DNA of 64,000 nt from assembly GCA_038396585.1 (NCBI GenBank), contig CP121691.1, positions 3,100,001 to 3,164,000 of the forward strand. The letters run 5' to 3'. Below, piece after piece: positions 30,512-51,827 of the stretch (within the stretch, counting starts at the first letter, position 1; every line of letters starts with the position of its first letter). The notes beneath the pieces were generated by a model. It had not been told where the DNA came from, did no database searches, and was given only the letters and a program-made list of their open reading frames with translations. Both the position numbers and the translations under genes were made by a program. The DNA is from Vallitaleaceae bacterium 9-2. GTDB taxonomy: Bacteria > Bacillota > Clostridia > Lachnospirales > Vallitaleaceae.

Positions 30512-30534
30512 TTTCCTATTGGAGGTGTTTTACT

Positions 30535-33167: not shown

Positions 33168-33601
33168 CTTAACACTCCTTTCACTGATTGACCAAAGGCA
33201 ATACACGCTTCTTTTGAAGCGCCTTCAGGCAGTTCATTAACAATCAAGCTATCTAACTCAATCTTAGCGCCTAGTCCATCCATCATCGCCTCCCATTCTT
33301 GCATCCATTCACCGTCGCCCCAACCATAAGATCCAAATAATGCAATGGATTTGTCTGCAAAGGCTTGTGCATGTTGTTTAATAAATGGTTCCATCTCGGA
33401 TGTATCAATCTCTTCAACGCCCATGGCCGAACATCCCAAGAGAACGATATCACTTTGTTCTATATCCACCCATTCGCTTTTAGCCACTGGTTTTATCGTT
33501 AACGCACTGTCCGCATTGACTTGTTGAATTCCTTGCCCAATAAGATGCGCCATCTTTTCGGTGTTCCCTGTACTTGTCCAATAAATAATCGCTATATTCA
33601 T
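33164..33601 (-). CDS. Short-chain flavodoxin
   Basis: 145 residues. The FMN phosphate loop is YWTSTGNTEKMA at the N-terminus; LLGCSAMGVEEID and LFGSYGWGDGEWMQEW are the isoalloxazine loops. A soluble electron carrier that can replace ferredoxin. The start has GGAGGAAT eight bases ahead. The gene leads the RIC operon, and a CRP/FNR-type palindrome lies 71 bases upstream, between it and the divergent FNR-like gene. Confidence 0.95.
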   Translation of the reverse strand: MNIAIIYWTSTGNTEKMAHLIGQGIQQVNADSALTIKPVAKSEWVDIEQSDIVLLGCSAMGVEEIDTSEMEPFIKQHAQAFADKSIALFGSYGWGDGEWMQEWEAMMDGLGAKIELDSLIVNELPEGASKEACIAFGQSVKGVLR

Positions 33602-33671
33602 TCATATTCCTCCATTTCGTATTCTCTTTAATGACTATGGATATATCTTACTCTTTATCCTTTTCTTTGTA

Positions 33672-33687
33672 TGTGATTCAAATCACA
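33672..33687. promoter_or_regulatory. CRP/FNR/HcpR-type binding site
   Basis: TGTGATTCAAATCACA: perfect 7-base arms (TGTGATT/AATCACA) around a 2-base centre, the TGTGA-N6-TCACA layout of the CRP/FNR/HcpR group. It lies between the flavodoxin-RIC operon and the FNR-like gene. If the weak -10 (TAAGAT, 33644-33649) of the flavodoxin gene is real, the site is centred near -41, an activating position. Confidence 0.75.
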
Positions 33688-33755
33688 AATACATCCAATA
33701 GCTTAAAACATATTTTTTATGATACAATATAAGAAACATAAGGAGGTGTCTTAGG

Positions 33756-34460
33756 ATGTCACATACGAACCACTGCCAGCATTGTTCCCATGGTCTTTGC
33801 ATTAGCAAAGTCTCTATTTTTAAGTCCCTTTCTCGGGAAGATAAAATCGCAATCTTGAAAAAAGTTCACCATATTACCGTGAATAAAGGAGAAACCTTTG
33901 TACGAGAGGGTGACCATTCTTCGACACTATACATCATCAATACAGGCATCGCCAAGTCTGTTCGTACAAGCGCGCTTGGAAAAGAGCAGATTATCTCTCT
34001 TCAGTCAGATGGCGATATCATCGGTGAATATTATCTTCTCAGCGATTATGAACCCTATCGCTTTTCTGTTATTGCTCTAAGTCAAATGCAATTATGCACA
34101 TTACAAAAAAAAGATATGGATGCGATTCTTGATCTTCATCCATACCTTTGCCGGTCCATGCTGACCGAACTGTCTAAAAAAATGATTACTATTGAAGACA
34201 AACTCGAAAATCTGGTGATTACAGACACAGATTCTAAAGTTGCCTATCTTCTCTTACAACTTTATGATAAATTTGGTCACTTAAGTCCTGAAGGTCCTCT
34301 TATTGACAATCCGCTTAGCCGAGAAGACATGGCTAACTTTGCCGGTATGACCCGTGAAACCATGAGTCGATACCTGAACAAATTAGCTAAGGACGGCACA
34401 ATCCGATTTTTAGGTCAAAAGAAGATCTTGCTGATTGATAAGGAGCTTTTGGAGATTTGA
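33756..34460 (+). CDS. FNR-like regulator with four conserved cysteines
   Basis: 234 residues. The N-terminus HCQHCSHGLC (C7, C10, C15) closely resembles the HCQDCSISQLC cluster ligands of E. coli FNR, and a fourth cysteine, C114 (MQLCTLQKKD), sits where E. coli has C122, so a [4Fe-4S] sensor of oxygen or nitric oxide is predicted. The DNA-binding helix reads GMTRETMSRYLNKL; the E-x2-SR residues match those of FNR, which read TTGAT-type half-sites. It is divergent from the flavodoxin-RIC pair and probably controls it. The gene ends six bases before the converging lyxose isomerase gene. Ribosome binding site AAGGAGGTG. Confidence 0.92.
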   Translation: MSHTNHCQHCSHGLCISKVSIFKSLSREDKIAILKKVHHITVNKGETFVREGDHSSTLYIINTGIAKSVRTSALGKEQIISLQSDGDIIGEYYLLSDYEPYRFSVIALSQMQLCTLQKKDMDAILDLHPYLCRSMLTELSKKMITIEDKLENLVITDTDSKVAYLLLQLYDKFGHLSPEGPLIDNPLSREDMANFAGMTRETMSRYLNKLAKDGTIRFLGQKKILLIDKELLEI

Positions 34461-34466
34461 ATAATT

Positions 34467-35141
34467 CTATACGTACTCATTACACAGCACTCTATATTTT
34501 GGTTCGTCTTCCTCAATTACCGGGAAGCGTCCTACACGTTTATCGTCAAAGAAATTGTCGTTTTCATCATCGTTGCACATAGATACTTCACCTAATAGCA
34601 CGTTGCCTCCTGACTTAGGAACAGAAAAATCATGATACATAAACTGTTGAATCGTTATACTTTCACCAGGACTTAGTTTGATCTTGCTTCCAGCCGACAC
34701 CACTCTATGTCTGCCATCCGTATTAATCTCAACATCCGTCTCTAATCGATTGCCTTCTCTGTCACTATTATATACGGTTATATAGACATCATTACCTCCA
34801 CGGTTAATAATATCTTCCATCTTACTACTATGATAATGTAGCGCGGCGTTTTGTCCTTCATATAGCATAAGCAACTTTTCAGCATATGTTTTTTTATATT
34901 TTTTCATATTATAATTCCCATTACGAATAGTGAATAAGGCGAATCCTACTTTCTTAAAATCATTTAGTCCAAAGTCAGTAATGTCCCACCCTAGATGATT
35001 GTCCCGAATTTCATCGTATTGTGCACCTTTATCTTTCCAGTCTTGTTCGTTCCAAAAAGCAAAGGGCGGTAGCTTAAATCTGCACGTATCAATAAGTATT
35101 TCCATATCTTTAATCACTTGATTGATTTCTGATCTTTTCAC
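34467..35141 (-). CDS. lyxA: D-lyxose ketol-isomerase
   Basis: About 225 residues, full length for the cupin-fold D-lyxose isomerase family (EcSI/YdaE type). Metal ligands are present at the expected positions: H102-Y-H104 and E109 in LHYHSSKMED and H170 in MYHDFSVP, matching H103, H105, E110 and H171 of the E. coli enzyme. It converts D-lyxose to D-xylulose and, in known members, D-mannose to D-fructose. It is the last gene of a sugar operon with RpiR regulator, kinase and aldolase. GAGG seven bases ahead of the GTG at 35141 sets the start; a GTG at 35147 is less likely. Confidence 0.9.
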   Translation of the reverse strand: MKRSEINQVIKDMEILIDTCRFKLPPFAFWNEQDWKDKGAQYDEIRDNHLGWDITDFGLNDFKKVGFALFTIRNGNYNMKKYKKTYAEKLLMLYEGQNAALHYHSSKMEDIINRGGNDVYITVYNSDREGNRLETDVEINTDGRHRVVSAGSKIKLSPGESITIQQFMYHDFSVPKSGGNVLLGEVSMCNDDENDNFFDDKRVGRFPVIEEDEPKYRVLCNEYV

Positions 35142-35154
35142 TGGCACACCTCAC

Positions 35155-35994
35155 TTAATATTTGTATTCTGATAAAATGATTTCAGGTTTATCTGCATCT
35201 TTACTTTCTATTGTTGCCCAATTTGTTAACAACTCTATAAGCGCATCAATAAGTGCTGTTTCTTTTAAATGTGCATAACTTCGATAATAACTAAACGACT
35301 CTTTTCTGTTACTCGAAATCAATGCATAATCAGCCAATTCTGCAACGGGAGACGTCTTTACCCCTGTAATAGCAATACTTTTTAAACCTTTGTCCTTAGC
35401 CAGCTCCATCCCTTGGATGACCTGCCTTGAACTTCCCGATTGTGATATTGCAAAAATAATATCTTCCGGACTTGCCAAGTTGACATGATTCATAAAATAC
35501 TCAGGAGCAATACCAAAGCTGCAATGAATACCTAACCTTCCTAAGCGAAACCCCATATATAAGGCCAAAGGGGTTGTATTTCCAACGGCTAATATGTGAA
35601 CTTGTTTACATGAGTTCATTAATTTAATACATTCATGCAAAACTTCATCTTCAATGTTCTCACCTATCTCCACCACCGATTCAGCATATCTGTTGAGGAT
35701 TTTTGTCATTGCATTCATCTCATTTTCATTGCTGCTTTCATTGTTATCCTCTTCATATCGTCCGACATATTTTGCCAGCATCACTTTGAATTGATAGTAT
35801 CCGGTATATCCCAAGTGTCTACACATACGTACAACTGTCGCATCACTTACCCCACTTTTTGCAGCTAGTTCAGCCACCGTTGCATTAACAGCATCCTGCG
35901 GATTTTTTAGCACATAATCCGCCACCTTTTTTTCCGCTGAAAAAATGTCATTGTAGTTTTCCTGGATGACCTCCATAACCGTTTTATCATTCAT
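35155..35994 (-). CDS. RpiR-family transcriptional regulator
   Basis: 279 residues. N-terminal helix-turn-helix domain (about 1-80) with NATVAELAAKSGVSDATVVRMCRHLGY, and a SIS sugar-phosphate-binding domain (about 115-255) with VHILAVGNTTPLA and IFAISQSGSSRQVIQG. RpiR proteins sense phosphosugars, here probably a product of the kinase encoded directly upstream. AGGAGG precedes the ATG. It is embedded in the operon it likely controls. Confidence 0.93.
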   Translation of the reverse strand: MNDKTVMEVIQENYNDIFSAEKKVADYVLKNPQDAVNATVAELAAKSGVSDATVVRMCRHLGYTGYYQFKVMLAKYVGRYEEDNNESSNENEMNAMTKILNRYAESVVEIGENIEDEVLHECIKLMNSCKQVHILAVGNTTPLALYMGFRLGRLGIHCSFGIAPEYFMNHVNLASPEDIIFAISQSGSSRQVIQGMELAKDKGLKSIAITGVKTSPVAELADYALISSNRKESFSYYRSYAHLKETALIDALIELLTNWATIESKDADKPEIILSEYKY

Positions 35995-36025
35995 TACTCT
36001 ACCTCCTGGTATTTATATAATTCTG

Positions 36026-37363
36026 TTACTTTTTAAAACATATCTGTACACCCGCAACAAATGAATCCCCTAAGCCAACAGTATACTTTGGCTTTTCAAT
36101 ATATTTTGTCGGAACGATGACTATTTTTTGCGCAGTACATTTACTTTCATGATTTTTATCATCAATAATTTTTTTATATTTTATGCCTTGGTCGCTTAGC
36201 GGAAGTTTCAGTATAGCATGAATATCATCAATAGAACCATATGTCCCTATAAGCGCTTTTGTTGTGGCCAACATATTTCCGTAAATCAGCCCAGCTTCAA
36301 TATCAACCTCTAAAGCATCCCCAACATACATGGAGTAATCTTTTGTATGTACTATAACTCCTTTTTTAATCCCATAGACTTGCTTGATTCTACACATGCC
36401 GTCAACGCACGCGATAATATCACGGATGTCAACATCATATTGCTCCATCTTCAAAGTATATTCCAACTCTTCTTCATTCAAACTTACAATATCAACTTCG
36501 TTGTAGATAGTTTCTAAACATATTTTTCTAATATTCTTGTTATGATAATGTGCATCTTCAAAAAAAACAATGCCTTTCTCATTATTTTTCCTAAAAATTG
36601 CCAAATGTTTCTTTATATAATCTAGACGATCCCGTAGAATTTGTTCATTTTCTACTGCATTAAAGCTTGATAACACATGGCTACTTATTTTTTTAGAGTG
36701 ATTTTCAATAAAATCAAAATATCCTTGGGAAAGCGGTAGAACCGCATTGACCGTAATCTTTGTAACAATTAAACGATTGGACGAGGGTATCACTATTTGT
36801 TCTTTATTCAGTTCGATTATATCCCCTTTTTTGAACTGAACAATAAAGTGAACTTCCTGTTCATTCGTTTGTCTTATATTATTTGCATGTACTAACTCCC
36901 CTTGTGCATTAGCTATATAGATATTAGACGTATTAAGTATATCACATACTGGACTAGAATCATCTGTAAGATGCACAAGTGATGCTAGATCAATCGCTGA
37001 TAGAGCAAGTGCTGCCTGGGTAGCTGTCCCACCCATAGCATATTCTGTCTCAAAGATATTTGTGATAATTTCCATATCACAAATATCCACTTCTCCCCCT
37101 ATCCCTTGTCGTGCAAAAAACACAATAGCACATAAAAAATCTTGCATGTTTTTAATATATTTAACCGCATGCATCTCTTCTAGCCTTCCATCAGGAAAAT
37201 GTTTTTTTAATAGCCGATTAAAAATATCAATGCGAAAATCACAAACCACGTCTAAATTACTTGTAAACCCTAGCGCAGGATATTCCACGCTATTATTCAA
37301 TCCCTTTGTTTTATTTTTTATTGTTTCATAAGCCGTAAAATATTTTTCCTCTATATTTATCAT
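36026..37363 (-). CDS. ADP-dependent-type sugar kinase (ADP-PFK/ADP-glucokinase family)
   Basis: 445 residues, longer than PfkB kinases but right for the ADP-dependent phosphofructokinase/glucokinase family. Family blocks: GFTSNLDVV near 32-40, MGGTATQAALALS near 133-145, FFEDAHYHNKNIRK matching the H-x-E-x-A motif in position, VDIVSLNEEELEYTL, and the catalytic GLGDSF with D433 twelve residues from the end. The family uses ADP as phosphate donor in archaea; bacterial members are rare. In this operon it would phosphorylate the ketose formed by the lyxose isomerase or a ketose phosphate. Donor and substrate need biochemistry. Ribosome binding site GGAG nine bases ahead. Confidence 0.82.
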   Translation of the reverse strand: MINIEEKYFTAYETIKNKTKGLNNSVEYPALGFTSNLDVVCDFRIDIFNRLLKKHFPDGRLEEMHAVKYIKNMQDFLCAIVFFARQGIGGEVDICDMEIITNIFETEYAMGGTATQAALALSAIDLASLVHLTDDSSPVCDILNTSNIYIANAQGELVHANNIRQTNEQEVHFIVQFKKGDIIELNKEQIVIPSSNRLIVTKITVNAVLPLSQGYFDFIENHSKKISSHVLSSFNAVENEQILRDRLDYIKKHLAIFRKNNEKGIVFFEDAHYHNKNIRKICLETIYNEVDIVSLNEEELEYTLKMEQYDVDIRDIIACVDGMCRIKQVYGIKKGVIVHTKDYSMYVGDALEVDIEAGLIYGNMLATTKALIGTYGSIDDIHAILKLPLSDQGIKYKKIIDDKNHESKCTAQKIVIVPTKYIEKPKYTVGLGDSFVAGVQICFKK

Positions 37364-37435
37364 ACTCTTTTACTCCATTCATTTCCAGCTTTTTATATGT
37401 ATATTTTTATACGTTTGCTCTATCAAAATCCTATT

Positions 37436-38296
37436 CTAATAAAAAGCAGCCTGATTATTTGCTTTAAAAAGGTCAATTTTAAATCTCGCTACTTTTTTCA
37501 TAGCTTCCATACACGGCGGTTCAATCATATTTGGTTCTCTTAGACTTTTATCCAATAAAACCTCCCGCATCTTTTCATAATAGGCCACTTTAATATCACT
37601 TGATATATTAATTTTATTAACCCCTAAAGTTACCGCTTGTGCAATCTCTTTATCAGGATTATTCGAACCTCCATGAAGCACCAACGGAATCGAAATCTTA
37701 CCTTTGATTTCTTTCAATAGATCTAATCTTAATTCTGGTTTCTTTCCCTCTGGATATAACCCATGAGACGTTCCAATTGCAATCGCGAGTGTGTCAACAT
37801 GTGTCTGTTGGACAAAATTCACCGCATCATCTGGTTGAGTATAGATAATCTCATCTGATATACTCTCCGCAGTTGAATCTGCTGTACCAATCGTTCCTAG
37901 CTCACCTTCGACCGAGACATCAACAGCATGGGCTGCTTCAACCACTTTTTGACATATAGCGATATTTTCCTCAAATGGTAAGCTCGACCCATCAATCATT
38001 ACCGATGTATATCCTGATTGAATTGCAAGCATTACTTGTTCAAAAGAAGCACCATGGTCTAGATGAATGCATACCGGAACCAAAGACGCATGCGCTCGTT
38101 CACGCATTGCTTCTATGGCATACTTCCCTATATGCGCCAATTCATCGGGATGAATCGATATAATAACCGGAGCTTCTTTTTCCTCTGAGACATCCATAAT
38201 ACCATTAAACATTGCATACGAACTAATGTTAAATGCCGGAACAGCAAATCCCTTCTCATTGGCTACTTTTAATATTTTACTCATATTCATTAACAT
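37436..38296 (-). CDS. Class II ketose-bisphosphate aldolase (GatY/FbaA family)
   Basis: 286 residues. Zinc and catalytic residues: HLDHG with catalytic D80 and zinc ligand H81, H178 in AIGTSHG and H208 in VLHGGS; the last two match the spacing in E. coli GatY. The GELGTIG loop and NISSDIK phosphate-binding block are also present. It cleaves a ketose (1-)phosphate or 1,6-bisphosphate into dihydroxyacetone phosphate and an aldehyde. With the kinase and isomerase next to it, likely substrates are tagatose-1,6-bisphosphate, fructose-1,6-bisphosphate or xylulose-1-phosphate. AGGAGG eight bases ahead of the ATG confirms the start. Confidence 0.9.
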   Translation of the reverse strand: MLMNMSKILKVANEKGFAVPAFNISSYAMFNGIMDVSEEKEAPVIISIHPDELAHIGKYAIEAMRERAHASLVPVCIHLDHGASFEQVMLAIQSGYTSVMIDGSSLPFEENIAICQKVVEAAHAVDVSVEGELGTIGTADSTAESISDEIIYTQPDDAVNFVQQTHVDTLAIAIGTSHGLYPEGKKPELRLDLLKEIKGKISIPLVLHGGSNNPDKEIAQAVTLGVNKINISSDIKVAYYEKMREVLLDKSLREPNMIEPPCMEAMKKVARFKIDLFKANNQAAFY

Positions 38297-38352
38297 CTTT
38301 TTTTCCTCCTATACGTATAATATATTTTTTTTATCTTCTAAGTTCTTAACAA

Positions 38353-39189
38353 TTAATGTTTGACGGCACCCGCTGTCATCCCCGCTATAAAATAACGTTG
38401 AAAAAACAGGAAAAGTAATAATACAGGCAAAGAGCCCAAAACACTCATCGACATCATCTGATTCCATTCATATGCATGTTGTCCCATCAAGAGACTAATA
38501 CCAACAGGAACCGTTCGCATATCATTGGTCTTAGTTAAGGCTAATGCAAAAAGGTATTCGTTCCATGCTTGCATAAATGTATACATCCCAACTGATACCA
38601 AGCCAGGTACAGAAATAGGTACTAAAACTGTCCATAGCGCTCGAAATCTAGAACCTCCATCAATCATTACTGCTTCATCCAAATCTTTGGGCAATGTATT
38701 AAAGTAGCCTGTAATCATCAAAATAGAATACGGCAACGTAAACAGCAGATACGTTAATACCAATGCCCAATAGGTGTTATACAGCTTTATCGTTACAATC
38801 AAGCTCAAGTAAGGTATAAGCAACGTAATCGGTGGAACTGCTTGTACACTTACAATCAACGTATTAATCGTACTTTTCCCTCTGAATTCAAATCGGCTAA
38901 AAGCATATGACGCCAATATACCTACAACAATCGTTAGTATAACAACAAAGAATGCGATGCAATAACTATTGATAAAAAAACGGATTTTTTCAGGACTTTG
39001 AAATATTGCCAAGTATGCATCGAAACTAAATTTTTCAGATATGATGGTGGGTGGCCATGCAAAAATCTCTGAATTTGGTTTAAAGGATCCCAAAATCATC
39101 CATAAAATAGGGAATCCTGCAAATATTGCTCCCAAAAAAAGAAGAACGACCACGATGATTTTTATATACCATTTTCTCTTTCCGACCAT
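38353..39189 (-). CDS. Sugar ABC importer permease (CUT1, MalG-type)
   Basis: 278 residues with six membrane segments. The EAA loop EAVMIDGGSRFRALWTVLVPISVPG near residue 180 and the C-terminal QRYFIAGMTAGAVKH are hallmarks of MalG-type permeases. It pairs with the upstream MalF-type permease (three-base gap) and the binding protein. No ATPase is encoded here, so a shared MsmK/MalK-type ATPase elsewhere must power it, the normal situation for CUT1 importers in Firmicutes. Confidence 0.92.
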   Translation of the reverse strand: MVGKRKWYIKIIVVVLLFLGAIFAGFPILWMILGSFKPNSEIFAWPPTIISEKFSFDAYLAIFQSPEKIRFFINSYCIAFFVVILTIVVGILASYAFSRFEFRGKSTINTLIVSVQAVPPITLLIPYLSLIVTIKLYNTYWALVLTYLLFTLPYSILMITGYFNTLPKDLDEAVMIDGGSRFRALWTVLVPISVPGLVSVGMYTFMQAWNEYLFALALTKTNDMRTVPVGISLLMGQHAYEWNQMMSMSVLGSLPVLLLFLFFQRYFIAGMTAGAVKH

Positions 39190-39192
39190 AGT

Positions 39193-40089
39193 CTAGTCCC
39201 TCGCTTTCTGATTTCGAACATAAAAAACTGCAATAATCGAGCAGACAATTAACAAAATAACCGCACTTGCTGACGCCTGAGAATACTGATACTTACTGAA
39301 ACCTAATTTGTAGATAAAAGTACTCAGCATCTCTGTAGCATTGATTGGCCCGCCACCTGTCGTCATCCAAATTAACGCAAATTGTTGAATCGTCCATACA
39401 AAGTCCAGCATCATCAAACTAATCAATATCGGCTTTAGTTGTGGTATCGTAATATGCATAAACTGCCTTAACATACCCGCCCCATCAATCGATGAAGCTT
39501 CATACAAGTCTGTCGGAATTCCCTGTAAGCCTGCAAGTATGCTCACCATGTAAAAAGGATACCCTGCCCATATATTTATTATCGTTACCGATATCAGCGC
39601 AAAGCTTCTAGAGCCTAACCATTCAATCTGTTGACTTGTTAAGTTAAACATCTGCAGAAGATAATTTATAACTCCATAAGGATTCAACATCATTTTCCAT
39701 AAGATAGCTATGATAGAAGCTGTGAACATCCATGGCAATGCATAAATCACTCGAAAAATTGCTTTTGTTCTTGTTGCCAAATAGGACGTATTTAATAACA
39801 GTGCATATACCATACCTAAAAACATATGCATAATAACACTAACTCCCACAAAAAATAATGTGTTTTTTACCGCAACAAAAAAGGTTCTATTGTTAACCAC
39901 CTTCACATAATTGTCAATGCCTACGAACATTGGGTTTTTGTTAATAATCACATTATCAAAAAACGAGTATCGAATGACCATACCTATCGGTATAACTAGC
40001 AAAACAATCATGATAGCTATTGTTGGCGAAAGATACAAATACGGCTCAAGCACTTTTTTTGCAACGAGTTTTCTCTTCTCTGACACCAT
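39193..40089 (-). CDS. Sugar ABC importer permease (CUT1, MalF-type)
   Basis: 298 residues with six membrane segments and an EAA loop, EASSIDGAGMLRQFMHITIPQLKP, near residue 205. N-terminal LYLSPTIAIMIVLLVIPIGMVI and VGIDNYVKV are standard for MalF/UgpA-type permeases. It is encoded between the binding protein and the MalG-type permease, in the usual order. Confidence 0.92.
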   Translation of the reverse strand: MVSEKRKLVAKKVLEPYLYLSPTIAIMIVLLVIPIGMVIRYSFFDNVIINKNPMFVGIDNYVKVVNNRTFFVAVKNTLFFVGVSVIMHMFLGMVYALLLNTSYLATRTKAIFRVIYALPWMFTASIIAILWKMMLNPYGVINYLLQMFNLTSQQIEWLGSRSFALISVTIINIWAGYPFYMVSILAGLQGIPTDLYEASSIDGAGMLRQFMHITIPQLKPILISLMMLDFVWTIQQFALIWMTTGGGPINATEMLSTFIYKLGFSKYQYSQASASAVILLIVCSIIAVFYVRNQKARD

Positions 40090-40158
40090 ACTTCTCCTTT
40101 CCGATCACCGAACTATGAAATAGTTCGGTGATCTGCCCATTACACTTATCCATGTTGC

Positions 40159-41508
40159 TTATTGAAATGCATCCAACCATATTTCTTGAGTTGTACTTAA
40201 CATTTCTTCTGTGGATTGAGTGTCCCCGTCAATATATAACTGTAATTGTTCATCAAATATTCGCATCAGCTCTTCTGATGTCGGAAGTCCTGTAAATTCA
40301 TTAATTGCATAGCACTCTTGATAAATTCCATAGGCTTTTACAAACAACGGATCTGCTGACGAATAATCTGGTTCAGCTTTTTTATTTCCCGGAAAAGCAT
40401 TGGCATAGACTGCCAGTTCTGCATTAACTTCAGGACTCATCATATATTCGACAAACTGCATTGCTTCAGCTTTATATTCACAATTTTCAGCAATACCGAT
40501 TCCCCAACTTGCTACATCCATTCCACTGTCTCCTACATAATTGTCTTTAACCGGAATTGACATAAAATCCATGTTCAAATCTGGAGCTTCGTTTTTTATC
40601 AGTGTCAAATGTGCTAATGAGTCTGTCATAAATCCAACTCGGCCATTTGTAAATTCTTCAACCATATCTGATTCTTTCATTGCGTAAGCACCTGGAGCAA
40701 CAACATCTTTATCAAATAGTTCTTTAACAAATTCAACTGTAGCCGTCATATCTTCATTATCTACTAATGCAGGTTGCCCATTTTCTAACATTGAACCACC
40801 AGAAGCCCATAACCAGCTCATGAAGTTATTTTGAATTCCACTTGGTGATTCTGTGGACAAAGGAATTGCCCAACCAGAAATCCCCTCTTGAGATTCTGTT
40901 ATCGCAACACATGCCTCCACAAATTCCGTCCAATTTTCAGGGACCTCTGTAATTCCTGCACCGCTTAAAATATCTAAATTCACATACATTGGATAGGCAA
41001 AATTAACAACCGGAATCATGTATGTATTTCCGTCGACTCGAATTTGATCAGATAGTTGGCTATCATCATAACCGTCAGCTTTCATAAGGGCTGTCATATC
41101 AGCAATAGATCCTTGTTTAGCGAAGTCGTACACCCATGATCCATCAAGTCCAACAACGTCTGCCATAGTTCCTGCTGCAGCTCCGGCTGCAATCTGAGTT
41201 TTTGTGTCTGCATATGGATTACTAAGCAATTCAATTTTGATGCCTGTATCTTTAGTAAATCCATCACATATTTCCTGCAAGACACCATCTGGTAATTCCA
41301 CACCCCACCATTGTTGAAATTCTAATGTCAATCCATTATTGTCAGAACTTTCTGTAGATCCAGTATCACTTTCAGGTTCTTTTTCTGTCTGTGTTGCATT
41401 GGTCTCAGTCTCTTCTTCTGTTGGTGAAGAATTCGAACACCCCATCATCGAGATCAGCATTCCAAATACCAACATCATTGTTAATCCTTTTTTTACAAAT
41501 AACTTCAT
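40159..41508 (-). CDS. Sugar-binding lipoprotein (CUT1 family) of the lyxose-isomerase operon
   Basis: 449 residues. Lipoprotein signal with lipobox ISMMGC (Cys24), then an acidic Thr/Glu/Ser linker to about 58. The rest is a type I-like extracellular solute-binding fold with FQQWWGVELPDG, TGIKIELLSNPYADT, VVGLDGSWVYDFAKQG and GWAIPLSTESPSG blocks. It gives the importer its specificity, which cannot be read from sequence. First gene of the operon; the 290-base region upstream is AT-rich, holds the terminator of the glucosidase gene at its far end, and shows no promoter I can define. Confidence 0.9.
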   Translation of the reverse strand: MKLFVKKGLTMMLVFGMLISMMGCSNSSPTEEETETNATQTEKEPESDTGSTESSDNNGLTLEFQQWWGVELPDGVLQEICDGFTKDTGIKIELLSNPYADTKTQIAAGAAAGTMADVVGLDGSWVYDFAKQGSIADMTALMKADGYDDSQLSDQIRVDGNTYMIPVVNFAYPMYVNLDILSGAGITEVPENWTEFVEACVAITESQEGISGWAIPLSTESPSGIQNNFMSWLWASGGSMLENGQPALVDNEDMTATVEFVKELFDKDVVAPGAYAMKESDMVEEFTNGRVGFMTDSLAHLTLIKNEAPDLNMDFMSIPVKDNYVGDSGMDVASWGIGIAENCEYKAEAMQFVEYMMSPEVNAELAVYANAFPGNKKAEPDYSSADPLFVKAYGIYQECYAINEFTGLPTSEELMRIFDEQLQLYIDGDTQSTEEMLSTTQEIWLDAFQ

Positions 41509-41733
41509 ACCTACAACCTCCCTTAATATTTTGTATCCTTTCCTTATTGGTGAGAATACATATGAATTTTCATTACATCCTGAATTCTATATGATATTTT
41601 ATTTCTTGTCAATCTCTTCATGTAATAATATTTTATTTTTCCTTTATGCACAATATTCAACATATTTTTTGTGCATTTTTTTATTTTTTTATGTACTTTA
41701 AACATTTATTTGTATATTTTTATTTTTACCCAT

Positions 41734-41788
41734 TAAAAAAGTACAACTCAAAGAAATTTTTTTTCTTTTCATTGTACTTTACAAATAA
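41734..41788 (-). terminator. Terminator after the isomaltase gene
   Basis: AAAGTACAA at 41738-41746 pairs with TTGTACTTT at 41772-41780, enclosing an A/T-rich inner hairpin. On the minus strand it ends in a run of T. It lies between the glucosidase stop and the next operon and insulates the two sugar modules. Confidence 0.7.
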
Positions 41789-41798
41789 ATTTATTTAA

Positions 41799-43424
41799 TT
41801 ACTTTTTCCCAAAAATCACTTTTGCTTCATATGGCTTTAAGTATTCTTCTTCCAACATTCTATCATAATTTGATAACAATAAATTTTTATACTCTAAATC
41901 CAAAAGATCATTACATCTATATTGTACTTTAAATGGTCTGAAGTTACAGATAACAATAAGTTCATAAGATCCAAGTATACGCTTATATGCAAAGATATCT
42001 TCATTATGTTTATCAATAAGTTCAAAGTTTCCGTCTCGAATAATCGACTTATATTGACTTGTTCGTCTAAATTCGATTATTTTTTTATAATAACTGTACA
42101 CTGAATTGTCATCTGCTATTTGAGCTTCTGCATTAATCATCTTGTAATTGCTATTAATATTAATCCATGGCGCAACCTTTGAAAACCCTCCATACTCTGT
42201 GCTATTCCACTGCATTGGAGTTCTAGCATTATCCCGTCCTATGTGATGTATCGAATTCATAATCTCATCATGAGAATATCCACGATTTATTCTTTCATGA
42301 TACATATTTAATATTTCAATATCTTTAAATTTTTCTATTTCTTGAAAATCCACATTGGTCATTCCTAATTCTTCACCTTGATACACATAAGGTGTTCCTT
42401 GCATAAAGTGTAAAAGCGTTCCAAACATCTTTGCTGATTCAACTCTCCATTGTTTATCATCTCCCCATCTTGAAACAATTCTAGGCAAATCATGATTATT
42501 CCAAAATAGTGCATCCCATCCTTTGTTATACAAACCTTGCTGTCTTTCTTCAAAATCTGTTTTTAGTTCATTTAAGGATACTTCTTTATAATCCCATTTT
42601 TCCTCTCCATCCATATCCAACAGAATATGCGAAAAGTTAAAAATCATGGATAACTCACTACCATCTAAATTAGAATATTTAATAGCTTTTTCAGTATCTG
42701 CGCTCCATGTCTCTCCTACCGTCATAACATCATAATGACTAAACGTTTTTTCCGTCATTTCACGAATGTAGTCATGAAGCTTTGGGCCATCTGTTATTAT
42801 TTTATCTTCTATCTCCTTAGCAACATAGTCGATGACATCAAGTCGAAATCCGCCAATCCCTTTTTCTAACCACCAATTAATCATTTGATACAGTTCTTTT
42901 CTGACTTGTGGATTATGCCAATTTAAATCTGCCTGTGATTTTGCAAACATATGTAAATACATCTCATCACGGTCTGGGGTTTCTTCCCACGCCGATCCCA
43001 AAAAAACAGATTGGAGATCATTAGGTGTCTTCCCAGTATTTTCATAAAAGTAATAGTAATCATGGTACTTAGATTTTTTATCATCTAGAGCTTGTTTGAA
43101 CCATTTATGTGATGTCGTCGTATGGTTTGCAACTAGATCCATGACAATTTTGATATCTCGCTTGCCCGCTTCTTTGATTAACCGTTCCATATCCTGCATG
43201 GTTCCAAACTCACCCATAATCGAATAGTAATCACTGATATCATATCCATTATCATCATTTGGCGATTCATAAACCGGCGATAACCAAATTACATTAGCAC
43301 CTAAATCCTGAATATAATCTAACTTATTAATTATTCCCTGCAAATCTCCAATACCATCATTGTTACTATCCATAAAACTTCTAGGATAGATTTGATACAC
43401 AACTGCCTCTTGCCACCACTTCAT
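41799..43424 (-). CDS. Oligo-1,6-glucosidase/isomaltase (GH13_31)
   Basis: 541 residues, no signal peptide, so cytoplasmic. GH13 regions in order: DLVANH (96-101), GGFRLDVIDY with nucleophile D196, VGETW with acid/base E238 and NNHDLP with D312. The Val197 after the nucleophile is the residue found in alpha-1,6-specific enzymes, where maltases have Thr or Ala. It would split isomaltooligosaccharides into glucose. It is the last gene of the operon, 14 bases after the GH66 gene, and both enzymes fit a dextran-derived substrate. Confidence 0.93.
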   Translation of the reverse strand: MKWWQEAVVYQIYPRSFMDSNNDGIGDLQGIINKLDYIQDLGANVIWLSPVYESPNDDNGYDISDYYSIMGEFGTMQDMERLIKEAGKRDIKIVMDLVANHTTTSHKWFKQALDDKKSKYHDYYYFYENTGKTPNDLQSVFLGSAWEETPDRDEMYLHMFAKSQADLNWHNPQVRKELYQMINWWLEKGIGGFRLDVIDYVAKEIEDKIITDGPKLHDYIREMTEKTFSHYDVMTVGETWSADTEKAIKYSNLDGSELSMIFNFSHILLDMDGEEKWDYKEVSLNELKTDFEERQQGLYNKGWDALFWNNHDLPRIVSRWGDDKQWRVESAKMFGTLLHFMQGTPYVYQGEELGMTNVDFQEIEKFKDIEILNMYHERINRGYSHDEIMNSIHHIGRDNARTPMQWNSTEYGGFSKVAPWININSNYKMINAEAQIADDNSVYSYYKKIIEFRRTSQYKSIIRDGNFELIDKHNEDIFAYKRILGSYELIVICNFRPFKVQYRCNDLLDLEYKNLLLSNYDRMLEEEYLKPYEAKVIFGKK

Positions 43425-43438
43425 TATTATCCTCCATT

Positions 43439-45097
43439 TTATCTAACAACCAATACCGACCAGATATCAATTTTATCTACATGCACCACTGCAACCGTTC
43501 CTCTTCCTTGATCATATGTTTCATAGGTTAATTTTTGCATCTTTGGTGACTCTGGAGATATCAAGTACACTCCTTCAATTGACTGATTCAGCAAAATCTT
43601 AACTATCATATCCCTTTGGACTATAGGTCTATTCTTTCCTTCATTCCATTGTTCATTATTCCCGACTAAATTAATGAAAGAGATAACTTTCATGGTAGTA
43701 TGTTCACGTATGATTGTCCATACTTTTCCCGCTTGTGCATATGGACTCGTCTCTACTTTCTCAAAGACATATTCTAAATTATCACCATAGGCATGCGTCA
43801 TCGAAACATCTATAAGCTCTTTATCAAAAAAAATTTCTGCATATTGTACACTAAAGTCATAGTATTTTCTAATGGCATTATAATACCGTTCTTCAACAGG
43901 ATAGTGATCCACATAATATCCTTGAGTTAACACCCGCTTGTCTTCCCCCATAACCAAATGGGTACTTCCATTGGCAATAATACAAGCCGTCAACAATGCT
44001 AATGCATTAAATGCTTGCTCTTGTGTTGCATACATGTAAGGTTTTAAATAGGCAGATATAATCAAACTTTTAGAACTTGCTACTTTTGCTTCATGAATTA
44101 TACGCTGTATATGTACATATTTGTCATATGGCTCCCACACTTCAACATACAAAATATCTTGATTTGCTTTGGCAGTAACATCTAACGGCCAGTTCCCCAC
44201 ATTGTTAAATATAACCGTTGTTTCTTTTTTCACTTTATCTAATGCAGCCTTTGTGTTATCAATTAATGGGCCAAAAGCTTCATCCATCTTGATATAACTC
44301 TTATCCACGTCATAACCACTTTTGGGGTATCCATATGTATCCATGTGAATTCCGTCAAAGTCCATTCGCTTAAGCGCTGTGCAATACTGGTCAATAATAT
44401 GTTGATGCCAAGGACATGTTGCATCAATATTCATAATATAAAATAAATCAATAAAAGTAATTGGCTTTGCATCATTGGTATACATTCCCCAATCTGCATG
44501 TTCTTCATAAAATTCTTTGGAAGCAGCATATACCGCCCCGTATGCCATTGTTTTCATCCCATAGCGATGACAAGCATCTATTTTTTTTTGTACAATTTCA
44601 GTTGACATGGATTTTCCCATTAGATCCATATACTGCTTCGTATCCGCTACCAAATATTCATGTCTATACATCCAATCATAAAATTGTACTAGGTTCATAT
44701 GTAATCTTAGCATGCTTTTAATGTCTTCATCTCCAGTATCTTCGGTTGTAAAATCACTCAAAAATCCATATCTTGGAATGATATGATGGCTTTTAGCCAC
44801 ATCAAAAGCCGTTCTCATACATTCAGTACCTAGTTTAATCGTAACGCCATATCCTCCACATTCAAATGGCTTTATTGGATATTGTATGCTCCTTGAATCC
44901 AATTCTAGCGCATATTTTCCACAAAACACCTGCTTGTCAAAATGTGTAACTATAATTTCTAACTCCTGAGAGGTTTTCTTTAACTGTTCTATCGTATATT
45001 CTTCAAGTTCGATCACAACAGCGACTTCTTCTCCTTTATGAAATTGTCCTTTAGTTGGATACACATCTTTGATCATCTGCTTTTTTTTCTCTTGCAT
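43439..45097 (-). CDS. Cytoplasmic GH66 dextranase-like glucanase
   Basis: 552 residues with no signal peptide, shorter than secreted GH66 dextranases (usually 600 to 1000 or more residues). An N-terminal beta-sandwich (about 8-100) is followed by a TIM barrel with FYDWMYRHE near 139, the nucleophile D253 in DGIHMDTYGYP, the acid/base Glu at E319 or E322 in YVEVWEPYD, and a C-terminal beta domain. GH66 enzymes cut alpha-1,6-glucan or make cyclic isomaltooligosaccharides. With an importer on one side and an isomaltase on the other, it most likely breaks down imported linear or cyclic isomaltooligosaccharides inside the cell. Confidence 0.88.
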   Translation of the reverse strand: MQEKKKQMIKDVYPTKGQFHKGEEVAVVIELEEYTIEQLKKTSQELEIIVTHFDKQVFCGKYALELDSRSIQYPIKPFECGGYGVTIKLGTECMRTAFDVAKSHHIIPRYGFLSDFTTEDTGDEDIKSMLRLHMNLVQFYDWMYRHEYLVADTKQYMDLMGKSMSTEIVQKKIDACHRYGMKTMAYGAVYAASKEFYEEHADWGMYTNDAKPITFIDLFYIMNIDATCPWHQHIIDQYCTALKRMDFDGIHMDTYGYPKSGYDVDKSYIKMDEAFGPLIDNTKAALDKVKKETTVIFNNVGNWPLDVTAKANQDILYVEVWEPYDKYVHIQRIIHEAKVASSKSLIISAYLKPYMYATQEQAFNALALLTACIIANGSTHLVMGEDKRVLTQGYYVDHYPVEERYYNAIRKYYDFSVQYAEIFFDKELIDVSMTHAYGDNLEYVFEKVETSPYAQAGKVWTIIREHTTMKVISFINLVGNNEQWNEGKNRPIVQRDMIVKILLNQSIEGVYLISPESPKMQKLTYETYDQGRGTVAVVHVDKIDIWSVLVVR

Positions 45098-45101
45098 ATA
45101 T

Positions 45102-45923
45102 TTAACCTTTTACCGCCCCTGCGGTAATCCCTTTAATAAAGTATTTTTGGAAAACAAGAAATGTTATTACCGCCGGCGCTAATCCAATCATAGCTGCGGC
45201 AGCCATCAGATTCCACTTTGCTCCATATTGTTGAAAAAACATGGATATAGCCAATGGAATTGTACGCATAGACTGCTTTTGCAAAAAGAAAACAGCCTGT
45301 GCATAGTTATTCCATATACTTAATCCATTGATAATAATAATGGATGATGTTACTGGTTTAAGTAGCGGAAAGACAATCTTAAAAAATGCGCCTATTCGAG
45401 TAGTTCCATCAATAATCGCGGCTTCTTCAAGAGTCTTGGGCACCCCTTTAATGAATCCAGAATACAGAAACGTCGAAAAGGGCAAAACATTCGTTGCCAA
45501 TATGAGAATCATCGCCCAATAAGTGTTAATACCGTTAATATCAATCATTAAAGTATATAAAGGGACTGTGTTAATGATTCCTGGAATCATCATACATCCT
45601 AACATAATCGTAAATATAATCTGATTCATCTTGTTCTTAATACGAGCCACTGCATAGCCTGCCATACTTCCAAAAAACACAACAATCGCAATAGCTCCAA
45701 CCGTTATAACTAGCGAATTAACGATTGCTTGACCAATCTGAGATGTCTGCCATGCATCCAAAAAATTTTTAAAATACATTCTAGGCACTATAACGAATTC
45801 CTCTGTAAAGTTTACTGATGGAGGCGTCATTGCCAAGATGAGCAAAATGTAAAAAGGCAGCAAAGCCATAAGAGTTATGAGAATAATCACTACTGACTTC
45901 ATTATATGTTTAAATCTATTCAT
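45102..45923 (-). CDS. Isomaltooligosaccharide ABC importer permease (CUT1, MalG-type)
   Basis: 273 residues, six membrane segments, EAA loop EEAAIIDGTTRIGAFFKIVFP near residue 175 and the typical C-terminus QKYFIKGITAGAVKG. It lies four bases before the GH66 gene and twelve after the MalF-type gene. No ATPase gene is present in the operon. Substrate is inferred from the neighbouring alpha-1,6-glucan enzymes. Confidence 0.92.
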   Translation of the reverse strand: MNRFKHIMKSVVIILITLMALLPFYILLILAMTPPSVNFTEEFVIVPRMYFKNFLDAWQTSQIGQAIVNSLVITVGAIAIVVFFGSMAGYAVARIKNKMNQIIFTIMLGCMMIPGIINTVPLYTLMIDINGINTYWAMILILATNVLPFSTFLYSGFIKGVPKTLEEAAIIDGTTRIGAFFKIVFPLLKPVTSSIIIINGLSIWNNYAQAVFFLQKQSMRTIPLAISMFFQQYGAKWNLMAAAAMIGLAPAVITFLVFQKYFIKGITAGAVKG

Positions 45924-45935
45924 AACACGTCTCTC

Positions 45936-46814
45936 CTAAGCTTCATATTCTTTTGTGTTTAAATACTTAAACGAGATCATAACAGGTATTAACACAATAA
46001 AAAATAGAATGATGGCAACTGCTGTCGAGTATCCCGTAAAACTTCCATAGCACATACGCATAATATATATGCTTAACGACTCTGTCCCATATCCGGGTCC
46101 GCCATCTGTCAACGCCATAATGATTTCAAAAACCGACAGCGACCCAATAATATTGGTAATTACATTTATCTTAATCGGTTGAATCATCATCGGCAATATG
46201 ATATATCTTATCCTCTGATAATAACTTGCTCCATCAATTTCCCCGGCCTCATGCATCTGTTCAGGAATCGCTTGCAATCCGGCAAGATAAATTACCATTG
46301 TCATCCCAACAAACTGCCATACATTAACAAAAATAATAATTCCTATCGCTATTGTTGGTGATGCCATCCAATTAAAATTTAATGGGTTATTGGTTAATAC
46401 TTCAACCAGAACATAAAGATATCCACGTCCCGGTTGAAGAATAAAATACCAAATGTATCCCATGATTAGAGGGCTAATCACTGCAGGCAAGTAAATAATT
46501 GTTCGAACGATCCCCTTGCCTTTAAACTTGGAGTCTAATAGCAGCGCATATAAAAACCCAAAAATATTCAACAACGGCGCACTGCCAACAGCAAATAACA
46601 CCGTTGTTTTTAGATCATTCATTGCCCTTTTATCTTGAAAAAAAGCAACAAAGTTATCCAAACCTATAAAATTAGGTGCTGAAACTCCATCATAATCTGT
46701 CAAACTTAGCCCAATACCACGCACTAAAGGGTATATGAAAAAAATGCTAAACAGTATAAACGCCGGAAAGATCATGACATGATGCAGTTTGGATACTATT
46801 TGTTTTTTAGCCAT
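45936..46814 (-). CDS. Isomaltooligosaccharide ABC importer permease (CUT1, MalF-type)
   Basis: 292 residues, six membrane segments, EAA loop HEAGEIDGASYYQRIRYIILP near residue 195 and the N-terminal FIYPLVRGIGLSLTDYDG block of MalF-type permeases. Ribosome binding site AAGGAG. Forms a heterodimer with the permease encoded downstream. Confidence 0.92.
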   Translation of the reverse strand: MAKKQIVSKLHHVMIFPAFILFSIFFIYPLVRGIGLSLTDYDGVSAPNFIGLDNFVAFFQDKRAMNDLKTTVLFAVGSAPLLNIFGFLYALLLDSKFKGKGIVRTIIYLPAVISPLIMGYIWYFILQPGRGYLYVLVEVLTNNPLNFNWMASPTIAIGIIIFVNVWQFVGMTMVIYLAGLQAIPEQMHEAGEIDGASYYQRIRYIILPMMIQPIKINVITNIIGSLSVFEIIMALTDGGPGYGTESLSIYIMRMCYGSFTGYSTAVAIILFFIVLIPVMISFKYLNTKEYEA

Positions 46815-46846
46815 CTAACTTCTCCTTATTATTTTCTCTTTATCCA

Positions 46847-48214
46847 CTAATTATTTGAGGCATTCCAGGCTTTATCCCACACATCCTTATATGCTTTTGC
46901 AAATTCAATTGAAGAGTCATATTGACCTGCATATAATTCTTGCACCATTCGTCCTGCATCATCACCAGAAAATCCCGAAGGGCTTTCATTGGTAAAACCG
47001 ATATTGATCCCATTTGCAAGAGCGGAATCCACTTCATCCTTCAACGGACCCCAATCTGGAGCCACATCATTAAATGCACTTGGCGATTTAATAAACTCAC
47101 TATATTTTTTTACATTCTCTGGTTGAAACAAAAAATCTAAAAATAGTTTTGCTTCTTCAGGATGTTCTGAAGCCGCCGTAATCGCATACGCTGAATCTTC
47201 TGCACTTAAAACCACCGGACTAGTTCCATCAACAATTGCTGGATATGGCATAAACCCTATGTTATCTGCCATGTCTGGATTTTTTTCCAAGATACCCCCA
47301 AGTACCCACATGCCTTGGCTAATGACTGCCGCTTCTCCCGTTGCAAATGCCTCTATTTGATTATCATATGTCGCTGTCAAGAAGTCCTCATTCAATATTT
47401 TTTTATCTCTCGCACTTAAAATAGCTGCTGCGAAGCTGTCCATCGGACCATTTTCATCTCCAAAGTGTAACTTTGCATCATCATTTTCCAAAAATGCAAT
47501 CTTTGCTCCCGTGGCACCTTCTTGTTGCTTAATCACACCATGCGCCATAAATTCAATCAAATGTCCTAACATCCAAGAGTCCTTACCTCCCATAAAAAAC
47601 GGGGTTACTCCTGTCTTTGCAACCTCCATCATACTCTGTTCAAATTCACTCCAAGTCCTTGGTTCCTCTATCTCAAGGTCACTAAAGATAGACTTGTTAT
47701 AATACATCCCTGCCATTGTCATATTGCTGGCAACCTTATATTGTTTTCCTGATATGGCATCTGTACAAAGATCACGAATGGATGGAGAAATCCTATCCCA
47801 CCACGCTTCTTGTGTAAGGTCTAAATACATTCCCTGATTGATATAATCTTGAGTTACAACCGTCACAATATCCGGAACATCGCCTGAAGCAAATTTAACC
47901 TTAATCACATTGCTCGCATCTTTTTGAAACTCTTGTTCTACCACAATATTAGGATTAGCTGCATTAAACTCATCGATTAATGTGTTCATTAACTCAACAG
48001 TCTCAACTTTCCCGGTAAACAGCTTAATATGAACGACTTCCTCACTTGCCTCATCTTCCTCCGTCATTGTGTTCGAACTATTATCTGACACTTCATCCAT
48101 CGTTTCATCGCTGACTTTATCAACCATTTCATCCGATGAGCCTTCACTTGCACATGCTGCCAACATAACCACAACGAGTAACGAACTTAAAAATAATGTA
48201 AAACCTTTTTTCAT
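46847..48214 (-). CDS. Isomaltooligosaccharide-binding lipoprotein (CUT1 family)
   Basis: 455 residues. Lipobox MLAAC (Cys21) is followed by an acidic Ser/Asp/Glu linker to about 60, then a class B/D solute-binding domain with VETVELMNTLIDEFNAANPNI, DIVTVVTQDYINQG and AEDSAYAITAASEHPEEAKLFLDFL blocks (each shown in part). It captures the oligosaccharide at the cell surface. First gene of the operon; the YesM/YesN genes start 195 bases away on the other strand, so the response regulator probably acts on the shared region. Confidence 0.9.
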   Translation of the reverse strand: MKKGFTLFLSSLLVVVMLAACASEGSSDEMVDKVSDETMDEVSDNSSNTMTEEDEASEEVVHIKLFTGKVETVELMNTLIDEFNAANPNIVVEQEFQKDASNVIKVKFASGDVPDIVTVVTQDYINQGMYLDLTQEAWWDRISPSIRDLCTDAISGKQYKVASNMTMAGMYYNKSIFSDLEIEEPRTWSEFEQSMMEVAKTGVTPFFMGGKDSWMLGHLIEFMAHGVIKQQEGATGAKIAFLENDDAKLHFGDENGPMDSFAAAILSARDKKILNEDFLTATYDNQIEAFATGEAAVISQGMWVLGGILEKNPDMADNIGFMPYPAIVDGTSPVVLSAEDSAYAITAASEHPEEAKLFLDFLFQPENVKKYSEFIKSPSAFNDVAPDWGPLKDEVDSALANGINIGFTNESPSGFSGDDAGRMVQELYAGQYDSSIEFAKAYKDVWDKAWNASNN

Positions 48215-48353
48215 AGTTTTCCCCTTTTCATTTATTAGATTACGTTTACTTGTTACACTATTTATTCTATGCTTGTTTTTCCTGCTTTAAAACACCTAAA
48301 ATTTACGATGAAGGGACTGTTTTTTACTATATGTCACATATTTTTTGATAAAA

Positions 48354-48362
48354 TGCTATACT
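48354..48362 (+). promoter_or_regulatory. Extended -10 promoter of the YesM/YesN genes
   Basis: TGC TATACT (TGn extension plus five of six -10 bases) about 48 bases before the yesM-like start. The -35 region is poor. The rest of the 48215-48409 divergent region is AT-rich and has no repeat I can define as a YesN site. Confidence 0.5.
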
Positions 48363-48409
48363 AGATTATGTAGCACCAAGCAGTTAAATATTACTTCTAG
48401 GAGGTATCC

Positions 48410-50200: not shown

Positions 50201-50212
50201 GGAGGTTTAACT

Positions 50213-51757: not shown

Positions 51758-51784
51758 CCTTCTTACACATTTCCAAAAAAGCAT

Positions 51785-51817
51785 AAAAAACCCGAGTGGT
51801 TATCACTCGGGTTTTTT
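51785..51817. terminator. Bidirectional terminator between yesN-like gene and SLH protein gene
   Basis: CCCGAGTG (51791-51798) and CACTCGGG (51804-51811) form a GC-rich stem with a five-base loop, with six A before and six T after, so it can stop transcription from both converging genes. Confidence 0.95.
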
Positions 51818-51827
51818 ACAGCTATTC

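What the first reader, a model, noticed from the sequence alone, without database searches (positions are those of the whole stretch)
34467..41508. Possible new sugar pathway: lyxose isomerase, ADP-type kinase and class II aldolase in one operon
Seen: binding protein, two CUT1 permeases, GatY-type aldolase with intact zinc and catalytic residues, a kinase of the ADP-dependent PFK/glucokinase family, RpiR regulator and a lyxose isomerase with all metal ligands. Known: ADP-dependent sugar kinases are mainly archaeal, and lyxose isomerase acts on D-lyxose and D-mannose. Inference: D-lyxose to xylulose to a phosphate cleaved to DHAP plus glycolaldehyde, or mannose/tagatose-type sugars to a bisphosphate.
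Basis: partly seen in the sequence, partly recalled or inferred. Interest (0 to 1): 0.75.

Follow-up and report, generated by a model that had tools for sequence, protein, structure and literature searches.

The report
Sugar operon with archaeal-type kinase
A bacterium carries a seven-gene set that should import a sugar, isomerise it, phosphorylate it with a kinase of a mainly archaeal family and split it in two; the same gene set recurs in distant Firmicutes, but its sugar and its phosphate donor are untested.

Summary
Confirmed: seven same-strand genes (34467-41508) encode a binding protein, two CUT1 permeases, a class II aldolase, a PF04587 (ADP-dependent PFK/glucokinase family) kinase, an RpiR regulator and a PF07385 D-lyxose/D-mannose isomerase. 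The importer lies beside 12 of 13 further full-length relatives of the kinase and an aldolase beside 13 of 13, across four Firmicute families: a real functional unit. It sits in a 17.4-kb segment absent from another genome of the species.

Best reading: aldose -> ketose (isomerase) -> ketose-1-phosphate (kinase) -> DHAP + aldehyde (aldolase). The kinase has glucokinase-type sugar-site residues and lacks the fructose-6-phosphate contacts. None of 22 operon-linked aldolases keeps a Ser/Arg pair that I recall as binding a 6-phosphate; one solved enzyme deposited as a bisphosphate aldolase lacks it too. Donor (ADP or ATP) and sugar (D-mannose or D-lyxose) remain open.

The same logic is published with other parts: lmuKAIZYX of E. 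coli O157 (same isomerase and aldolase families, PfkB kinase). An lmu-like operon also occurs in the window's order. New variant of a known kind; what is distinctive is a bacterial subfamily of PF04587 for which my searches found no characterised member.

The parts
40159..41508 (-). CUT1-type sugar binding protein (N-terminus reads like a lipoprotein signal)
   Evidence: SBP_bac_1 115.5 bits; 65-72% identical in 12 relatives' loci
39193..40089 (-). CUT1 permease, MalF/UgpA type
   Evidence: BPD_transp_1 56.1 bits; best NCBIfam UgpA, below its cut-off
38353..39189 (-). CUT1 permease, MalG/GlcU type
   Evidence: BPD_transp_1 57.9 bits; 72-83% identical in 12 relatives' loci
37436..38296 (-). class II (zinc) ketose-phosphate aldolase, PRK08185-like
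   Evidence: F_bP_aldolase 310 bits; PRK08185 404.3 against cut-off 405; motifs intact
36026..37363 (-). sugar kinase of the ADP-dependent PFK/glucokinase family
   Evidence: PF04587 114.4 bits; model matches 4b8s at Z 40.7; residue table
35155..35994 (-). RpiR-type regulator with SIS domain
   Evidence: HTH_6 74.9 and SIS 71.8 bits
34467..35147 (-). D-lyxose/D-mannose-type isomerase (probable true start 35141)
   Evidence: Lyx_isomer 301.6 bits; aligned to 3kmh over its length
41584..41612 (-). promoter-like site, TTGACA-17-TAGAAT, upstream of the binding-protein gene
   Evidence: 11 of 12 matches, the best of 28 hits, but hits as a whole are not above shuffles (33.5)
41735..41780 (-). AT-rich inverted repeat with T run, possible terminator of the upstream GH13 gene
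   Evidence: read by eye; the terminator scan did not list it
34458..51822 (.). strain-variable 17,365-base segment holding this operon, a GH13/GH66 CUT1 operon and a two-component pair
   Evidence: absent in the conspecific genome G453, whose flanks lie 72 bases apart

Best explanation
It is a transferable catabolic operon for a sugar of the D-mannose/D-lyxose type. The binding protein and two CUT1 permeases import the sugar, with an ATPase encoded elsewhere (inferred). The PF07385 isomerase turns the aldose into its ketose (D-mannose to D-fructose, or D-lyxose to D-xylulose). The PF04587 kinase phosphorylates the free ketose at C1. The class II aldolase splits the ketose-1-phosphate into DHAP and an unphosphorylated aldehyde (glyceraldehyde or glycolaldehyde). 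RpiR probably senses a sugar phosphate and controls the unit. Shown here: gene set, conservation, fold and residue patterns. Inferred: every reaction, C1 as the site, the sugar and the donor. I lean to D-mannose/D-fructose over D-lyxose/D-xylulose (about 55:35, rest other sugars) and only weakly to ADP over ATP (about 60:40).
For: Conserved unit in 13 further loci. PF07385 in 12 of 14 kinase-bearing genomes against 41 of 392 genomes of the order, with two size classes of PF07385 recruited beside the operon. Kinase: glucokinase-type E91 and H172 kept, F6P contacts K179 and R212 lost, in 14 of 14 clade members; nearest folds are ADP-dependent glucokinases. Aldolases: Ser and Arg of FBP aldolases 4to8/7ncc absent in 22 of 22 operon-linked or adjacent members. 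Mutarotase-type genes beside the operon in L007, L010 and L075 fit an aldose. Two PF07385 loci of the order sit with GH2 genes bearing mannosidase-type Ig domains. The lmu precedent: LmuI isomerase, LmuK with fructose kinase activity.
Against: No reaction was tested. The role of the aldolase Ser/Arg pair is recalled, not cited, and 8q58, deposited as a ketose-bisphosphate aldolase, also lacks both (8q57, deposited as KbaY, lacks the Ser; its Arg column is not aligned). In 6 of 13 further loci no PF07385 gene lies nearby (three of these contigs end close to the cluster), and 2 of 14 genomes have none at all, so the isomerase is not indispensable. L004 and L007 carry an extra PfkB kinase, which could mean two phosphorylations there. 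CUT1 importers often carry oligosaccharides (recalled), and the binding protein's nearest solved relatives are mostly maltose/oligosaccharide binders. lmuK and lmuA were dispensable for growth on lyxose.
Confidence: 0.5

Rival explanations
1. Bisphosphate route: the kinase, alone or with a second kinase, makes a ketose-1,6-bisphosphate (fructose, tagatose or another hexose), which the aldolase splits into DHAP and glyceraldehyde-3-phosphate.
For: The aldolase family is named for bisphosphates (TIGR00167 267 bits, over its cut-off of 215.6). Family members include F6P kinases. L004 and L007 have an extra PfkB kinase. 8q58 shows that an enzyme deposited as a bisphosphate aldolase can lack the Ser/Arg pair.
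Against: The kinase lacks K179 and R212 of the F6P site and has the glucokinase His. 22 of 22 linked aldolases lack Ser and Arg of 4to8/7ncc. The window operon has one kinase only.
Confidence: 0.22
2. The kinase is an ordinary ATP-dependent (or other-donor) ketokinase that has left ADP dependence, so 'ADP-type' is only ancestry.
For: The His of the HXE motif is Phe in 14 of 14 clade members and Val in L074/L075, against His in the 8 other bacterial and 3 archaeal rows; N32 is Thr or His in the operon-linked rows. The sister operon type lmu uses an ATP-coupled PfkB kinase.
Against: R197, E269, E299, H339 and D433, matching the beta-phosphate, metal, ribose and catalytic contacts of ADP-dependent enzymes, are kept in 14 of 14. 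The 17 best structural matches are ADP-dependent family members.
Confidence: 0.38
3. The operon serves a C6-modified sugar, such as a 6-deoxy-D-mannose-type sugar or a sulfo-sugar, which cannot be phosphorylated at C6 and so needs C1 phosphorylation and an aldolase.
For: Loss of the recalled 6-phosphate contacts; an aldo/keto reductase beside L007 and a short-chain dehydrogenase beside L075 could handle an odd aldehyde.
Against: No dehydrogenase, reductase or exporter gene in the window operon; no direct evidence for any such sugar.
Confidence: 0.1

Closest known systems
lmuKAIZYX lyxose/mannose utilization operon, E. coli O157:H7 EDL933 (PMC10128022, section 7 read; L084)
   Same: ABC importer, PF07385 isomerase (40.6% identity), class II aldolase PF01116 (36.4% over 239 aa, also without the Ser/Arg pair), one sugar kinase
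   Different: LmuK is PfkB (PF00294), its binding protein is Peripla_BP_4, and it is controlled by a two-component pair; the window has PF04587, SBP_bac_1 and RpiR
ADP-dependent glucokinases and phosphofructokinases (PF04587; e.g. 4b8s, 5od2, 6xio)
   Same: fold over 431 residues, GXGD Asp, phosphate-binding Arg, metal-binding Glu residues
   Different: 20-25% identity to solved members; HXE His replaced by Phe; sits in an aldolase/isomerase operon; donor untested
PF07385 D-lyxose/D-mannose isomerases (3kmh)
   Same: aligned over the whole length with the His/Glu motif kept
   Different: below NCBIfam's cut-off for the Gram-negative equivalog, 239 of 350 bits
Class II fructose-bisphosphate aldolases (4to8, 7ncc)
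   Same: fold family and zinc/catalytic motifs
   Different: Ser and Arg columns are His and Asn

Membership tests
PF04587 kinase family (by descent) | curated Pfam score and fold | tested here: met
   114.4 bits against 27; Z 40.7 to 4b8s, rmsd 2.9, 431 aligned
PF04587 kinase family (by descent) | catalytic Asp of GXGD, Arg for the transferred phosphate, metal-binding Glu of HXE and NXXE/DXXE | tested here: met
   D433, R197, E269, E299 in 14 of 14 clade members
ADP-dependent glucokinase/PFK as enzymes | complete HXE motif | tested here: not met
   His replaced by Phe in 14 of 14, Glu kept; I therefore file it in the family by descent, not as an ADP-dependent enzyme
ADP-dependent glucokinase/PFK as enzymes | ADP as phosphate donor | not testable with these tools
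   needs an assay
ADP-dependent phosphofructokinase | F6P contacts K179, N181, R212 | tested here: not met
   E170, H172, I203 in the window; roles from PMC7948494
PF07385 D-lyxose/D-mannose isomerase | family score and His/Glu motif | tested here: met
   301.6 bits; alignment to 3kmh
PF07385 D-lyxose/D-mannose isomerase | activity on D-lyxose or D-mannose | not testable with these tools
   needs an assay
Class II aldolase PF01116 | family score and zinc/catalytic motifs | tested here: met
   310 bits; motifs
Fructose-1,6-bisphosphate aldolase (specific) | Ser and Arg columns of 4to8/7ncc (role recalled) | tested here: not met
   His and Asn; caveat 8q58
lmu operon | PF07385 isomerase, class II aldolase, sugar kinase, ABC importer together | tested here: met
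lmu operon | PfkB-type kinase and Peripla_BP_4 importer | tested here: not met
   window has PF04587 and SBP_bac_1 against PF00294 and PF13407; works like lmu, is not an lmu operon

The most novel reading that the evidence does not exclude
A bacterial subfamily of the ADP-dependent kinase family has become an ADP-dependent ketose 1-kinase (ketohexokinase or xylulose-1-kinase type), a specificity that I do not know for this family, and forms the core of a transferable ketose-1-phosphate pathway in Firmicutes.
Probability: 0.28. Interest if true: 0.68.

Novelty: new variant of a known kind. Interest (0 to 1): 0.45.

Why it matters
It places a mainly archaeal kinase family in a defined, conserved bacterial sugar operon and so gives a direct way to find what bacterial members phosphorylate and with which donor. 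It also suggests that the isomerase-kinase-aldolase logic published for lmuKAIZYX has been assembled more than once with unrelated kinases and importers, and that it varies between strains here.

Tried and rejected
Rejected: N in place of D in the DXXE motif as a sign of ATP use. N is also in all ten bacterial PF04587 rows outside the clade, and PMC6028617 itself writes 'NXXE' (passages).

Rejected: the GH13/GH66 genes as part of the unit. A promoter-like site and a terminator-like repeat lie between, and no GH13 or GH66 relative was labelled in the operon loci examined for it.

Led nowhere: the ligand of the binding protein; its nearest solved relatives are at E 1.3e-19 or weaker and mostly maltose/oligosaccharide binders. 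Binding-protein orthologues at E <= 1e-120: 1 of 391 class genomes, the window's own.

Literature: ten searches. None listed an isomerase/PF04587-kinase/aldolase operon; searches returned no paper. The library is open-access only, so this is weak evidence of absence. What I saw: PMC7948494, part 1 of Results and part 1 of Discussion, and passages; PMC10128022, section 7 and passages; PMC6028617, PMC12203962 and PMC12696579, passages only; all others, search listing only.

Tree: the 13 clade kinases given to it hold together at 84/89 only, and with the two 402-aa kinases at 100/98, with a long-branch warning; the three archaeal rows are aligned parts, and L066 was not included. L013 (Thermobacillus) has only pieces of the kinase gene (query 28-63 and 176-348) and no operon beside it; it is left out of the 13-locus counts. 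One row, L030, was asked for but did not reach the table.
Full report
What is there. Seven genes on the - strand between 34467 and 41508 form one tight unit: binding protein (40159-41508), two CUT1 permeases (39193-40089, 38353-39189), class II aldolase (37436-38296), PF04587 kinase (36026-37363), RpiR regulator (35155-35994) and PF07385 isomerase (34467-35147), with gaps of 3 to 72 bases. Pfam confirms each assignment. In NCBIfam the kinase's best model is PRK14039, ADP-glucokinase, at 116 of 387 bits; the isomerase reaches 239 of 350; the aldolase reaches PRK08185 at 404.3 of 405 and passes only the broad TIGR00167. A promoter-like site (11 of 12) and, by eye, a terminator-like repeat lie between the upstream GH13 gene and the binding-protein gene, so I take it as its own transcription unit; promoter-like hits in the region are not above shuffles.

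It is a conserved unit. A pattern scan of genome contigs with the kinase confirmed 12 loci, eleven with a full-length gene (L002-L012). Two more full-length relatives came from the whole-genome set: L066 from G019 and L067 from G386. In these 13 loci the three transporter genes lie beside the kinase in 12 (L009 starts at its contig end), a class II aldolase in 13, RpiR in 10. The other three (L002, L003, L006) have a gene that reads like a DeoR regulator (of such genes only L008's was Pfam-checked), and L002's contig ends just after the kinase. A PF07385 isomerase is nearby in seven: full-length in L005, L007, L008, L066; short type in L010 and L012; short type about 7 kb away in L003. Binding protein and permeases are 62-83% identical to the window's, the kinase 46-56%. 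The named hosts span Lachnospiraceae, Bacillaceae, Paenibacillaceae and Halanaerobiaceae. The unit is rare: clade-level kinases in 2 of 398 phylum genomes (16 others have matches of 148 bits or less) and 2 of 22 family genomes (a third has only a 68-residue match).

Related versions. Close orthologues of the second permease occur in 4 of 392 order genomes: the window's, G019, and two (L074, L075) in which the operon holds a very different 402-aa PF04587 kinase (22-24% identity) and a different class II aldolase; L075 also keeps the isomerase, RpiR and the usual aldolase. G059 and G357 (L072, L073) have a sister kinase of 513-572 aa in the order RpiR, binding protein, two permeases, kinase, aldolase. 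The partnership of PF04587 kinase, CUT1 importer and class II aldolase is thus wider than the window's clade.

Isomerase association. PF07385 is in 12 of 14 genomes that hold the clade kinase (misses G386 and G836) and in 41 of 392 genomes of the window's order, among them all four permease-bearing genomes (in G1147 it lies on another contig). The counts are not corrected for kinship, and the 14 span other orders. I read one PF07385 locus in each of 15 of the 37 other PF07385 genomes, chosen by me mainly among strong hits. By BLAST labels, one is an lmu-like operon (L107), three have a PfkB kinase (L105, L106, L112), two have a DUF4432-like gene and a GH2 gene (L102, L104), and none has a labelled PF04587 kinase; the remaining nine show no labelled sugar kinase. 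Pfam confirms PfkB in L105, L107 and L112, and mannosidase-type Ig domains in the GH2 genes of L102 and L104. That makes D-mannose a likely natural substrate of some PF07385 enzymes here.

Kinase. The model (mean pLDDT 87.1) matches ADP-dependent glucokinases best: 4b8s Z 40.7, rmsd 2.9, 431 residues aligned, tied with 5o0j (40.2) and 1ua4 (40.0); 6xio, the F6P complex, has Z 36.8, rmsd 3.3, 414 aligned. Adenosine kinases follow at about Z 22 and ketohexokinases at about Z 20. By the residue roles in PMC7948494, mapped by me through the alignments, the window protein has the Glu of glucokinases and bifunctional enzymes (E91) and the glucokinase-type His (H172), and lacks K179 (now E170) and R212 (now I203). 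E91, H172 and the loss of K179 and R212 hold in 14 of 14 clade kinases and in L072-L075. As a contrast, L025 and L031, bacterial rows outside operons of this kind as far as seen, keep K, N and R at those columns. The catalytic Asp, the phosphate-binding Arg, the ribose-contact His and both metal-binding Glu are kept. But the His of HXE is Phe in 14 of 14, and N32, which that paper calls highly conserved, is Thr. I conclude that the substrate is probably an unphosphorylated sugar and that the donor is open.

Aldolase. The zinc and catalytic motifs are intact. At two columns where FBP aldolases 4to8 and 7ncc have Ser and Arg, none of 22 operon-linked or adjacent aldolases has either, nor do LmuA and its L107 relative. 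From memory these residues bind the 6-phosphate; I found no paper to cite for it. Against this, 8q58, deposited as a ketose-bisphosphate aldolase, also lacks both, and 8q57, deposited as KbaY, lacks the Ser while its Arg column is not aligned. The pattern favours, but does not prove, a substrate without a 6-phosphate.

Mechanism. Import, isomerisation, C1 phosphorylation, retro-aldol cleavage to DHAP and an aldehyde, RpiR control. The window operon has one kinase, and aldolases of this kind release DHAP from a C1-phosphorylated end (recalled), so in a linear pathway the kinase must act at C1. D-mannose via D-fructose and D-lyxose via D-xylulose both fit. The genome has two genes over the xylulokinase cut-off, which makes another xylulose kinase less needed.

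Comparison. The published analogue is lmuKAIZYX of E. coli O157:H7 (PMC10128022, section 7): importer, isomerase LmuI (its sequence matches 3kmh), aldolase LmuA and kinase LmuK, which had fructose kinase activity in an ATP-coupled assay. Deleting lmuI or the importer reduced growth on lyxose, whereas lmuK and lmuA were dispensable. Here the kinase family, importer class and regulator differ. It works like lmu but is not an lmu operon.

Mobility. In another genome of the species (G453), stretches matching window 29755-34457 (98.8%) and 51823-63998 (93.6%) lie 72 bases apart, and that genome shows no PF07385 gene and no close permease. A 17,365-base segment is present here and absent there: this operon, a second CUT1-like set with GH13 and GH66 genes, and a histidine kinase/response regulator pair. 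I saw no integrase among its listed ORFs. GC is 36.0% against 37.9% and 40.2% in the flanks. Gain here or loss there is not decided.

Verdict. Observation confirmed, interpretation partly supported, new variant of a known kind. The open point worth an experiment is the bacterial PF04587 kinase: its sugar, its carbon and its donor.

Noticed in passing
window 34458-51822: A 17,365-base segment is absent from a conspecific genome (G453), whose flanking sequences lie 72 bases apart.
   Followed up: partly
window 41799-48214: A neighbouring same-strand set in the same variable segment: GH13 (PRK10933 phosphotrehalase-type, 581 bits), GH66 dextranase-family protein and, by reading, two permeases and a binding protein; perhaps for alpha-1,6-glucans.
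   Followed up: no
L074:7088-8296 and L075:7695-8903: A 402-aa, very divergent PF04587 kinase (22-24% identity) with its own aldolase stands in the same operon; HXE His is Val.
   Followed up: partly
L072, L073: A sister kinase of 513-572 aa in a RpiR/binding protein/permeases/kinase/aldolase order in two genomes of another family.
   Followed up: partly
L013 10001-10592: Thermobacillus xylanilyticus keeps only pieces of the kinase gene without the operon, perhaps a relic.
   Followed up: no
L107 1142-7507: An lmu-like operon (importer, aldolase, PfkB kinase, PF07385 isomerase) in the window's own order.
   Followed up: partly
L021-L042: Other PF04587-like proteins of about 470-580 aa in the phylum; L025 and L031 keep the F6P-type K, N and R, and two (L026, L034) lie beside a gene that reads like an iron-type alcohol dehydrogenase.
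   Followed up: no
window 51828-63966: Two very large proteins (1402 and over 2300 aa), the second with repeats that read like S-layer-type domains; this side is 93.6% identical to the conspecific against 98.8% on the other side of the segment.
   Followed up: no
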